The notes beneath the pieces were generated by a model. That model ran no database searches. It was not told the DNA's origin and saw nothing but the letters and a program-made list of their open reading frames with translations. Of a DNA stretch of 64,000 nucleotides, positions 33,894 through 45,061 are shown one piece after another (positions within the stretch are counted from its first letter, which is position 1; the number at the start of each line of letters is the position of its first letter). The translations under genes and the position numbers were made by a program. This stretch comes from Archaeoglobaceae archaeon (lineage in GTDB: Archaea; Halobacteriota; Archaeoglobi; Archaeoglobales; Archaeoglobaceae), in NCBI GenBank assembly GCA_025057895.1, contig JANXEF010000004.1, positions 1 through 64,000 on the forward strand, written 5' to 3'.

Positions 33894-34664
33894 CTAAAAA
33901 CCACCCCAATAAGAGATGAAATTGACAATTGAAAGTGTCGATATTATCGCCTCTTCCAAACGAACACTCCTTACACCCTGTCCGGGAATTGTGTTCCAGA
34001 CTTCTACATCCATATCTATGCTCATTCTCTTCATTATTTCAAATACATCCTCTTTTGGATTTCCAAAGATGAAAGTTAACTTTTTTATTATCTCCTCAAG
34101 TCTTGGTATTTTTCCTTTTCTGGAAGTTACTATTACATCTTTTTCCTTTAGCACATCCTCAAGCTCTACCTCTCTTACTCTATATCCCCAGTATTCTTCA
34201 GCTTCTGCCTTCTCGACTAGCAACGGGGTCTTCGAAATGACCCTGACGGTCACACGTGCACCCTTTTGCTCATCACTTTGTAGGGGTGCAAGGGCACCAA
34301 GACCTATATCTACCCATCGTGTTCCGTCAGGAGCCACCCTTCTTACGACCCCCTCCCTCACCTCGCCGATTTTTAAATTTTTCGACTTATGAGACGGTAT
34401 CGCAAGCGGTGGAACAACACCTATGAATCTGAGTTCTTTATCAACCGGAAAAAGTGTTTTTCTAAGATATTGGGGTGTTTCGAGGTACTCTAGTACTTTT
34501 TTTATCAATTTGGTCTCGTCAAGAACTGGATCTCGGTATATTATAACCTCCTTGACTTTGAAAATTGCAAAAGCTCTTGCCATTGTTCCAATTTTATATA
34601 TTTTTATCTTTTCATCTGTTTCGTTTATCAGTGAAGAAGATGGAATCGCTACTTTGATTTCCAT
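33894..34664 (-). CDS. Putative RNA uridine N3-methyltransferase, SPOUT family
   Basis: A 256 aa protein of COG2106, whose eukaryotic relative is SPOUT1/C9orf114. The SPOUT fold starts with VAIPSSSLINETDEKIKIYK and includes the inserted OB-like barrel (GEVREGVVRRVAPDGTRWV) and the C-terminal knot NTIPGQGVRSVRLEEAI. Its fixed position before L3 in Archaea suggests 23S rRNA as substrate; this is inference. The start overlaps the end of cbf5 by 16 bases. Confidence 0.88.
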   Translation of the reverse strand: MEIKVAIPSSSLINETDEKIKIYKIGTMARAFAIFKVKEVIIYRDPVLDETKLIKKVLEYLETPQYLRKTLFPVDKELRFIGVVPPLAIPSHKSKNLKIGEVREGVVRRVAPDGTRWVDIGLGALAPLQSDEQKGARVTVRVISKTPLLVEKAEAEEYWGYRVREVELEDVLKEKDVIVTSRKGKIPRLEEIIKKLTFIFGNPKEDVFEIMKRMSIDMDVEVWNTIPGQGVRSVRLEEAIISTLSIVNFISYWGGF

Positions 34665-39224: not shown

Positions 39225-39388
39225 GATCTAACTCTATATTTAGATCTATAAATTTTTCCAAGCTCTCTGATTTTCGATCTTTTTCATTTGTTTTAAATCG
39301 GTTGTAAAGTTTTAAAAGTTAGTATGTATTATATAATCATTAAAAAATGAATGGAAAAGCTTATAATTTCTTTATCAAAATATGTATT

Positions 39389-40822
39389 ATGACAAAAATA
39401 AAGATCGTCGACTTGACGATGAGAGATGGACATCAATCTTTGCTGGCAACTAGAATGAGGACTCGTGATATTTTGCCAATTCTTGAAACTTTTGATTCCG
39501 CTGGGATTTTCTCTTTTGAAGTTTGGGGAGGAGCGACTTTTGATGTTTGTCACCGTTTTCTGAACGAGAATCCATGGGAAAGGTTGAGAGAAATAAGGAA
39601 GAGAGTTAAAAACACTTATCTTCAAATGTTGCTCCGTGGTCAGAACTTAGTTGGCTACAGAAATTATCCAGATGACATAGTAGAGAAATTTGTTAAAAAA
39701 ACAATTGAATGTGGGCTAGATCTTTTTAGGATTTTTGATGCGTTAAACGATACTCGTAATCTCGTTAGTTCAATAAAGTTTGCTAAGAAGTACAAAGCAA
39801 ATCATGTTCAGGGAACGATCTGTTATACGATTTCTCCAGTTCACACAATCGAAAAATATGTTGAAATTGCGAAAGAGCTTGCTGCGATGGAAGTCGATTC
39901 GATTTGTATAAAGGACATGGCTGGGCTTTTATCACCAAAAGTAACTTTTGAGCTTTTTAAAGCCTTAAGAAAAGAAGTTAAATTACCAATTGATTTTCAT
40001 TCCCATTACACAAGCGGTATGGCTTCAATGAGTCTGTTAAAGGCAGTAGAAGCTGGAGCAGAGATGGTTGACGTATCTATGTCTCCTCTTGCTCTTGGAA
40101 CAGCTCATCCGCCTACAGAATCGGTAGTCTTTGCTCTTGAAGAGCTTGGATATAAAACAGGAGTAAAAATGGATGTCCTTCTCAAAGTTAGGGATTATTT
40201 CATGCAGATAAGGGAAAAATATGCTGGTTACTTAGATCCACTTTCAACTATACCTGACACAAACGTTCTTGTTTATCAAATCCCAGGAGGAATGTTCTCT
40301 AATATGATTTCACAGCTTAAAGAGCAGAACGCTATGGATAAACTTGGAGAAGTTCTAAAAGAAGTTCCAAGAGTTAGAGAAGACTTTGGATATCCTCCTC
40401 TTGTGACACCGACAAGTCAAATAGTTGGTGTCCAGGCTGTTATAAACGTTCTAATGGGTGAAAGATATAAAGTTGTTACAAAGGAATCGAAAGATCTTGT
40501 AAAGGGTATGTATGGAAAAACTCCAGCACCGATAAAGGAAGAAATCGTGAAGAAAATATTAGGTAATGAAAAACCAATAGACTGCCGTCCAGCGGATTTA
40601 CTTCAGCCAGAGTTTGAGAAGAGAAAGAAGGAACTTGAAGAAAAAGGAATAGAGGCAAGTGATGAGAACGTTCTCATATATGCTTTATTCCCACAGACGG
40701 GACTACAATTCCTACTAAAACAAACAAAAGAAGAACCCTTCCCACCTACCACGAAAGTAGCTGGAGATTTCGAAGTAGTTATAGATGGAGTAAAGTATGC
40801 TGTGAGTGTAAAATCAGCTTAA
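39389..40822 (+). CDS. Pyruvate/oxaloacetate carboxyltransferase subunit (PycB/OadA-like)
   Basis: A 477 aa TIM-barrel carboxyltransferase that moves CO2 between biotin and pyruvate/oxaloacetate. It has TMRDGHQSLLATRMRTRD at the N-terminus, LLRGQNLVGYRNYPDD, the catalytic Lys region DSICIKDMAGLLSP and metal ligands in DFHSHYTSGMA. The conserved C-terminal domain runs to about 440, but the biotin domain with its MKM motif is missing; the protein ends shortly after VVIDGVKYAV. A separate biotin carrier is therefore expected. Open frame extends to 39347, but a TATA-like gcttataatt (about 39358) supports a leaderless start at ATG 39389. Confidence 0.9.
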   Translation: MTKIKIVDLTMRDGHQSLLATRMRTRDILPILETFDSAGIFSFEVWGGATFDVCHRFLNENPWERLREIRKRVKNTYLQMLLRGQNLVGYRNYPDDIVEKFVKKTIECGLDLFRIFDALNDTRNLVSSIKFAKKYKANHVQGTICYTISPVHTIEKYVEIAKELAAMEVDSICIKDMAGLLSPKVTFELFKALRKEVKLPIDFHSHYTSGMASMSLLKAVEAGAEMVDVSMSPLALGTAHPPTESVVFALEELGYKTGVKMDVLLKVRDYFMQIREKYAGYLDPLSTIPDTNVLVYQIPGGMFSNMISQLKEQNAMDKLGEVLKEVPRVREDFGYPPLVTPTSQIVGVQAVINVLMGERYKVVTKESKDLVKGMYGKTPAPIKEEIVKKILGNEKPIDCRPADLLQPEFEKRKKELEEKGIEASDENVLIYALFPQTGLQFLLKQTKEEPFPPTTKVAGDFEVVIDGVKYAVSVKSA

Positions 40823-41874: not shown

Positions 41875-41975
41875 CAGTTCATCGATAAGACAATAAATCA
41901 GGAGATTTAAAATTTTCTCTACAAATTTTCCTGTTTTCAATTATAATTTATTCTCTTCACTTTTCGGTAACAGCC

Positions 41976-42022
41976 TCAGACTCTCCCTATCATCACTTGT
42001 CAGATCGCCCATCAGTCATCAT
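41976..42022 (-). ncRNA. Box C/D guide sRNA
   Basis: Minus strand in order: C box ATGATGA, 12-base guide CTGATGGGCGAT, D' box CTGA, spacer CAA, C' box GTGATGA, 10-base guide TAGGGAGAGT, D box CTGA. Flanking GCC and GGC can pair to close the k-turn, extending the RNA to about 41973-42026. Box identity, order and spacing match archaeal 2'-O-methylation guides. By the five-base rule the D guide would methylate U in ACUC-U-CCCUA, and the D' guide C in AUCG-C-CCAUCAG. Targets are not identified. It lies between two minus-strand genes. Confidence 0.88.
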
Positions 42023-42081
42023 CGGCAAAAAAAGTCTGAAGATAGAAGAAAAGTTTTTCGGTAAATTAGAAGTAAATTTCA

Positions 42082-44254: not shown

Positions 44255-45061
44255 ATGGATCGAGAAGAAATAAGAGTTGCAGTGCTTAGGATTGAGGGAA
44301 CAAACTGTGAAGAAGAAACTGCAACTTCTTTTAGAAATCTTGGTGTTGAAGCGGAGATAGTGCACTTAAAACAGTTTTACAGCGACATGATAAGATTTGA
44401 AGATCAGAGAAGTATTTTTGATTACCACTGTATAGTTTTTCCAGGTGGTTTCTCGGCAGGTGATTATGTTCGTGCTGGTGCGATTTTTTCTGCAAGAGTG
44501 AAGAGTGTTCTCAGGAAGGATCTTGAAGAATTTATAAAATATAATTATCCAATTCTTGGAATTTGTAATGGTTTTCAGATCCTTGCAGAACTTGGAGCTC
44601 TTCCAGGCTTCGATGAAGATAGACCGATTTCAGATAGACCAGAAATGGCCTTAGCGATAAATGACTCAGGTAGATTTGAATGTAGACAAACCTTGCTACG
44701 GGTTGAAAGTAGGAAATGTGTTTTCACGAAAGAGATCGAGAAAGATAAACTTCAAATACCTGTAGCACACGCAGAGGGAAAAGTTGTCTTTCCAAGAGGT
44801 AGAGAAGAGGAGTATCTTGAGAAGCTGAAAGAAAACGAACAGCTGGTTTTCAGATATGTCGACGATAAGGGAAATTACTCTGGCTATCCTTGGAATCCGA
44901 ATGGGAGTTTTTATAATATAGCTGGGATCTGTAATGTTACACATACAGTTCTTGGTTTGATGCCACATCCTGAGAGAGTAACTTTTGATTATAGGAAAAA
45001 TAGCTTCGGAGATGGATATTATATATTTAAAAGTGTAATATCTTATCTTGAGAAAATATGA
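44255..45061 (+). CDS. purQ: Phosphoribosylformylglycinamidine synthase subunit PurQ
   Basis: A 268 aa class I glutamine amidotransferase giving ammonia to PurL for FGAM formation in purine synthesis. The nucleophile is Cys in LGICNGFQILAELG; VFPGGFSAGDYVRAGA and the His-Glu pair in LMPHPERV complete the active site. The N-terminus VAVLRIEGTNCEEETATSF is typical. TATA-like tctaaatatc about 24 bases before the ATG suggests a leaderless mRNA. It overlaps the CBS-ParB gene by four bases; purL and purS are not here. Confidence 0.95.
   Translation: MDREEIRVAVLRIEGTNCEEETATSFRNLGVEAEIVHLKQFYSDMIRFEDQRSIFDYHCIVFPGGFSAGDYVRAGAIFSARVKSVLRKDLEEFIKYNYPILGICNGFQILAELGALPGFDEDRPISDRPEMALAINDSGRFECRQTLLRVESRKCVFTKEIEKDKLQIPVAHAEGKVVFPRGREEEYLEKLKENEQLVFRYVDDKGNYSGYPWNPNGSFYNIAGICNVTHTVLGLMPHPERVTFDYRKNSFGDGYYIFKSVISYLEKI

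What the first reader, a model, noticed from the sequence alone, without database searches (positions are those of the whole stretch)
41973..42026. Box C/D guide sRNA between the coiled-coil gene and the MFS gene
The minus strand shows C (ATGATGA), D' (CTGA), C' (GTGATGA) and D (CTGA) boxes with guides of 12 and 10 bases and a 3-base D'-C' spacer, flanked by pairable GCC/GGC. This is the canonical archaeal methylation-guide layout in an intergenic gap, an RNA gene that protein-centred annotation would miss. Predicted targets by the D+5 rule are U in ACUCUCCCUA and C in AUCGCCCAUCAG; I could not match them to an RNA from memory.
Basis: partly seen in the sequence, partly recalled or inferred. 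Interest (0 to 1): 0.8.

Follow-up and report, generated by a model that had tools for sequence, protein, structure and literature searches.

The report
Ordinary archaeal rRNA methylation guide RNA
This is a real but ordinary small archaeal guide RNA that most likely tells the methylation enzyme fibrillarin to mark two nearby spots in the ribosome's catalytic centre; one of its two guides is nearly identical to a laboratory-studied guide RNA (Pyrococcus sR26), so it is a new member of a well-known kind.

Summary
On the minus strand, 42026-41973, lies a complete box C/D sRNA: GCC stem, C, 12-nt D' guide, D', 3-nt spacer, C', 10-nt D guide, D, GGC stem. It is the only such array in the window (0 in 200 shuffles). 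Rfam calls it (sR1, RF01152, 52.3 bits, threshold 45). Homologues with the same layout occur in 30 related genomes, with a BRE/TATA-like element at fixed distance upstream, so it is very probably its own gene. The genome is an incomplete Archaeoglobaceae MAG without rRNA, so I used relatives' rRNA. The D' guide is identical at these 10 positions to Pyrococcus furiosus sR26, whose RNP methylates its D' substrate (UUCGCCCAUCA) in vitro. The same guide module occurs in at least 117 archaeal contigs, in the D' half in Archaeoglobi and the D half in many other lineages. Not novel as a kind; the target sites are predictions, without RNA or methylation data.

The parts
41973..42026 (-). Box C/D guide sRNA gene (whole)
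   Evidence: Rfam sR1 RF01152 52.3 bits; pattern unique versus shuffles; conserved in 30 related genomes, own included
42024..42026 (-). 5' terminal stem GCC (pairs with GGC 41973-41975)
   Evidence: Read directly; GCCG in 27 of 30 homologues, GGC in 22 and GGT in 5 on the other side
42016..42022 (-). C box ATGATGA
   Evidence: Read directly; the same in all 30 homologues
42004..42015 (-). D' guide CTGATGGGCGAT; predicted target 23S rRNA helix 92, methylated base C2558 (E. coli numbering)
   Evidence: 10/10 pairing with relatives' 23S, 10-11 pairs in other archaeal lineages; same 10 nt as P. furiosus sR26 D' guide
42000..42003 (-). D' box CTGA
   Evidence: Read directly; conserved
41997..41999 (-). 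D'-C' spacer CAA (k-loop)
   Evidence: 3 nt in 28 of 30 homologues, 4 nt in 2
41990..41996 (-). C' box GTGATGA
   Evidence: Read directly; RTGATGA in 28 of 30 homologues
41980..41989 (-). D guide TAGGGAGAGT; predicted target 23S rRNA, methylated base U2513 (E. coli numbering)
   Evidence: Best 23S site in all 8 Archaeoglobaceae LSU sequences; weaker alone (78 of 400 shuffles do as well for the window's guide, 18 of 400 for a variant guide)
41976..41979 (-). D box CTGA
   Evidence: Read directly; conserved
41973..41975 (-). 3' terminal stem GGC
   Evidence: Read directly
42047..42060 (-). Probable BRE/TATA promoter element (GAAAAACTTTTCT region) of the sRNA gene
   Evidence: A-rich then T/A-rich columns at -38 to -27 from the C box across 26 homologues with otherwise mostly unrelated upstream sequence; the window's copy is a weak match

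Best explanation
A double-guide archaeal box C/D sRNA, probably with its own promoter. L7Ae binds the C/D k-turn and C'/D' k-loop, Nop5 and fibrillarin join, and fibrillarin 2'-O-methylates the rRNA base paired to the fifth guide position before each D/D' box. Predicted products are Cm2558 in helix 92 (the A-loop hairpin) from the D' guide and Um2513 from the D guide, 45 nt apart in domain V of 23S rRNA near the peptidyl transferase centre. Shown: the sequence anatomy, its conservation, the guide-target complementarity in relatives, the match to P. furiosus sR26. Inferred: transcription, RNP assembly and methylation in this organism.
For: Rfam hit above threshold and unique pattern. Same anatomy in 30 Archaeoglobaceae and related genomes with changing neighbours and a promoter-like element at fixed distance. 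The D' guide's ten invariant positions pair 10/10 with 23S U2555-A2564 in all 8 Archaeoglobaceae LSU (8 Watson-Crick and 2 G-U; one more G-U in one genome), and 10-11 pairs in Ca. Pyrohabitans, Thermoplasmatota, Methanomassiliicoccales and Altiarchaeota genomes that carry the same guide; 2 of 1000 shuffled guides do as well across those lineages. P. furiosus sR26 has the same guide and a D' substrate GCUUCGCCCAUCAC that its RNP methylates (PMC7089733). The best D-guide site in 23S lies 45 nt from the D' site in every genome. L7Ae-family genes are in this genome; fibrillarin in all 9 other genomes of the genus.
Against: No RNA reads or methylation maps. The window's own MAG (79% complete) holds no rRNA and no clear fibrillarin, so targets come from relatives. 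In Archaeoglobaceae alone the D' pairing is reached by 36 of 1000 shuffles. The D-guide match alone could be chance and the D guide differs outside the family (L021). Nop5 was not searched.
Confidence: 0.88

Rival explanations
1. Same class of RNA, but the D' guide acts on 16S rRNA C1402 (P site, methylated in bacteria and eukaryotes and seen as Cm1376 in P. abyssi) instead of, or besides, 23S C2558.
For: Nine contiguous pairs (one G-U) with CCGCCCGUCA in all 8 full SSU sequences; Cm1376 seen in P. abyssi (PMC7005279).
Against: Leaves an A-C mismatch at guide position 2 and a G-U at position 8, yet those two guide bases are the same in all 30 homologues (the 117-contig set was selected by them) and pair Watson-Crick with nearly all 23S sequences examined. 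The literature assigns the 16S site to another sRNA, sR12 (PMC3511168).
Confidence: 0.12
2. The D guide has no rRNA methylation target, or a different one (tRNA, mRNA), and only the D' half is a working guide.
For: Only 7 Watson-Crick pairs plus a G-U for the window's D guide; shuffled guides do as well in 78 of 400.
Against: Conserved GGGAGAG core and variant guides (TGGGGAGAGG) that extend pairing to 9 with the same site; the site is always 45 nt from the D' target; no better tRNA match.
Confidence: 0.25
3. A chance arrangement of boxes, or part of the untranslated region of a neighbouring gene without a guide function.
For: Lies in the same orientation between two minus-strand ORFs.
Against: Shuffles, Rfam score, conservation across genomes with different neighbours.
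Confidence: 0.02

Closest known systems
Pyrococcus furiosus sR26 (box C/D sRNA used in sRNP structural studies)
   Same: C box, ten D' guide positions (UGAUGGGCGA), D', C' and D boxes, double-guide layout; its D' substrate holds UUCGCCCAUCAC (PMC7089733)
   Different: D guide is CGGAGGUGAUCU in sR26 (its substrate resembles the 16S 3' end) and UAGGGAGAGU here; terminal stem differs; spacer 4 nt versus 3
Rfam sR1 (RF01152)
   Same: Above the gathering score in cmscan; boxes and much of the D' half align
   Different: Model consensus of the D guide (GuAgGugACCUc) and part of the D' guide differ; shared D target not shown; the genome-search tool gave 38.3 bits, below 45
Archaeal sR12 / eukaryotic SNORD43-snR70 (guides for the 16S C1402-equivalent)
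   Same: Box C/D guide; partial complementarity of the D' guide to the same 16S site
   Different: Rfam sR12 18.6 bits against 38 and SNORD43 14.8 against 45; this guide fits 23S C2558 better

Membership tests
Archaeal box C/D sRNA | C (RUGAUGA), D' and D (CUGA), C' boxes in order with guides of about 9-13 nt | tested here: met
Archaeal box C/D sRNA | Terminal stem and short D'-C' spacer for k-turn and k-loop | tested here: met
   GCC/GGC, spacer 3 nt, conserved
Archaeal box C/D sRNA | Guide complementarity to rRNA or tRNA with the D+5 base paired | tested here: met
   D' with 23S C2558, strong; D with U2513, moderate. Relatives' rRNA used
Archaeal box C/D sRNA | Partner proteins L7Ae, Nop5, fibrillarin in the organism | tested here: inconclusive
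   L7Ae-family genes found in own MAG; fibrillarin only in the 9 congeners, own MAG incomplete; Nop5 not searched
Archaeal box C/D sRNA | Expressed as a small RNA bound by L7Ae and directing methylation | not testable with these tools
   No reads or modification data
Rfam sR1 (RF01152) | cmscan score at or above the curated threshold | tested here: met
   52.3 against 45 bits; 38.3 in the whole-genome tool's scoring
Rfam sR1 (RF01152) | Same target sites as the family's founding members | not tested
   Seed sequences and their targets not available; D guide consensus clearly differs
P. furiosus sR26 | D' guide sequence and substrate | tested here: met
   10 of 10 core guide positions identical; window guide pairs 10 of 12 with the sR26 D' substrate
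P. furiosus sR26 | D guide sequence | tested here: not met
   TAGGGAGAGT versus CGGAGGTGATCT: shares one half only
Archaeal sR12 (16S C1402-equivalent guide) | Rfam sR12 score at or above threshold | tested here: not met
   18.6 against 38 bits

The most novel reading that the evidence does not exclude
The guide UGAUGGGCGA for 23S A-loop C2558 is one of the most widely shared methylation guides in archaea: an ancient C-guide-D module kept nearly unchanged and found now in the D' half (Archaeoglobi, Hydrothermarchaeota, Pyrococcus sR26), now in the D half (Methanobacteriales, Thermoplasmatota, Altiarchaeota), with the partner guide replaced freely.
Probability: 0.5. Interest if true: 0.4.

Novelty: new member of a known kind. 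Interest (0 to 1): 0.17.

Why it matters
It adds one guide RNA with assigned targets to Archaeoglobaceae MAGs and shows that one guide known from Pyrococcus is shared across much of the Archaea. That makes 23S C2558 a good site for testing how conserved guide modules move between the two halves of C/D sRNAs. By itself the locus is ordinary.

Tried and rejected
The first target scan used loci in unsorted orientation and with flanks; its output was discarded. 16S C1402 was my first D' target; rejected as the main one after comparing the invariant ten positions with 23S. The 23S site at ACACCGCCCAUCC was dropped because it is not conserved among relatives. tRNAs gave no good match. The only other exact TCGCCCATCA in the genome, G000:C33:42076, was not examined further. 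The LSU piece in G008:C115 reads unlike the others in the target region and was set aside as probable contamination. Hansen 2002 on A-loop modifications is not held. No paper holding Cm2558 was seen in the search. A structure search of the L7Ae gene failed on coordinates and was not repeated.

Full report
Observation. The minus strand of 41973-42026 reads GCC G ATGATGA CTGATGGGCGAT CTGA CAA GTGATGA TAGGGAGAGT CTGA GGC. A strict pattern for the whole array hits only this place on either strand of the 64-kb window, and never in 200 dinucleotide shuffles. Rfam finds sR1 (RF01152) here at 52.3 bits, above its curated 45. The genome-search tool scored the same place 38.3 bits with its own settings; I rely on the cmscan value but note the difference.

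Setting. The window is G000:C35 of a 1.01-Mb MAG, 79% complete. The group is Archaeoglobaceae: several genomes of the same family and genus match named Archaeoglobus or Archaeoglobi contigs in length and sRNA, for example G006:C1 (40482 bases) and isolate WYZ-LMO2 contig QNUZ01000001.1. The sRNA lies in a 141-bp gap, in the same orientation as both neighbours. In a congener (L013) the homologue lies between homologues of the outer genes, the carboxylase/decarboxylase-like gene at 39347-40822 and the purQ-like gene at 44255-45061, without the coiled-coil and MFS genes in the fetched stretch; in another (L012) an MFS homologue is near. In the other fetched loci none of these neighbours was found.

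Conservation. Thirty loci, the window's own included, keep C, D', C', D, the 3-4 nt spacer and mostly the GCC/GGC ends; the D' guide is N-TGATGGGCGA-N in all, and the D guide keeps a GGGAGAG or near core in the family. Upstream sequences are otherwise mostly unrelated but share an A-rich run at -38 to -35 and a T/A-rich run at -32 to -27 from the C box, as expected for a BRE/TATA promoter starting transcription near the 5' GCCG. That supports an independent gene, although the window's own copy of the element is weak.

Targets. The MAG lacks rRNA, so relatives' rRNAs were used. The ten invariant D' guide bases pair without a mismatch to U2555-A2564 of 23S rRNA (E. coli numbering assigned by me from knowledge of the E. 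coli sequence), the 3' side of the A-loop hairpin, putting C2558 at the methylated position. Genomes from other lineages that carry the same guide have 10-11 pairs there, all Watson-Crick in Ca. Pyrohabitans. In the Archaeoglobaceae set alone 36 of 1000 shuffled guides do as well; across the other lineages 2 of 1000 do. The D guide's best 23S site in all eight Archaeoglobaceae LSU sequences is GCUCUCCCCA, U2513, always 45 nt from C2558. On its own this match is not significant; the constant distance and the TGGGGAGAGG variants that pair further make it likely. The rival D' target, 16S C1402, pairs over nine bases but needs an A-C mismatch and a G-U at two invariant guide positions; the literature assigns that site to sR12 (PMC3511168), and P. 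abyssi does carry Cm1376 there (PMC7005279).

Known relatives. P. furiosus sR26, the guide RNA of box C/D sRNP structural work, is printed in PMC7089733: its D' guide is GUGAUGGGCGAA and its D' substrate GCUUCGCCCAUCAC, which its RNP methylates more efficiently than the D substrate. The window guide shares the ten core bases and pairs 10 of 12 with that substrate. The D guides differ. So the locus is half sR26 with another second guide, in line with the varied pairing of guides described in PMC7994747 (abstract). The paper's main text as searched does not name the rRNA site of the sR26 substrate; the assignment to C2558 is mine.

Spread. A pattern of C/C' box, guide and D/D' box was found in at least 117 archaeal contigs before the scan hit its limit, among them Methanobacteriales, Thermoplasmatota, Altiarchaeota, Methanocaldococcaceae, Hydrothermarchaeota, Diapherotrites and Nanohaloarchaea. 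In Archaeoglobi and Hydrothermarchaeota a C' and D box follow (guide in the D' half); in most others a D'-like CTGA precedes and the RNA appears to end after the box (guide in the D half). The pattern fixes the guide letters, so it cannot show how often other archaea vary them.

Machinery. L7Ae-family genes are present. Fibrillarin is clear in the 9 other genomes of the genus and missing only in this incomplete MAG, whose one hit is weak.

Verdict. A genuine, already recognisable box C/D guide sRNA; new member of a known kind; low interest except for the breadth of the shared A-loop guide.

Noticed in passing
L088-L204 (genome-contig loci), e.g. L110 1300-1321, L165 5650-5671: The guide module TGATGA-N-TGATGGGCGA-N-CTGA sits in the D' half in Archaeoglobi and Hydrothermarchaeota but in the D half in Methanobacteriales, Thermoplasmatota and Altiarchaeota.
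   Followed up: partly
L149, L156, L165, L195: These homologues (L149, L156 and L165 are Hydrothermarchaeota/Pyrohabitans) pair the same D' guide with a different, mutually conserved D guide, CCCTATGAGC, resembling the Rfam sR41 consensus.
   Followed up: no
G000:C22:21992-22045 (L031 1501-1554): A second box C/D sRNA-like sequence in the same genome, GGCGATGATGAAAGGACCCCACTGAAGGTGTGATGAGGGTTTTGAGTTCTGAGCC, with a weak sR1 score (18.6 bits).
   Followed up: no
window 34243-34330 (-): Rfam L4-Archaeoglobi ribosomal protein leader at 34.6 bits, just over its threshold of 34.5.
   Followed up: no
L051 (G008:C115): Partial LSU rRNA in a congener MAG differs from all other Archaeoglobaceae LSU in the target region; probably a contaminant contig.
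   Followed up: no
L071 (G000:C22:8315-8389): A tRNA gene in the window's genome for which ARAGORN gives an unassigned isotype and a four-base anticodon (gttt) with a longer gene; it may be misfolded by the program.
   Followed up: no
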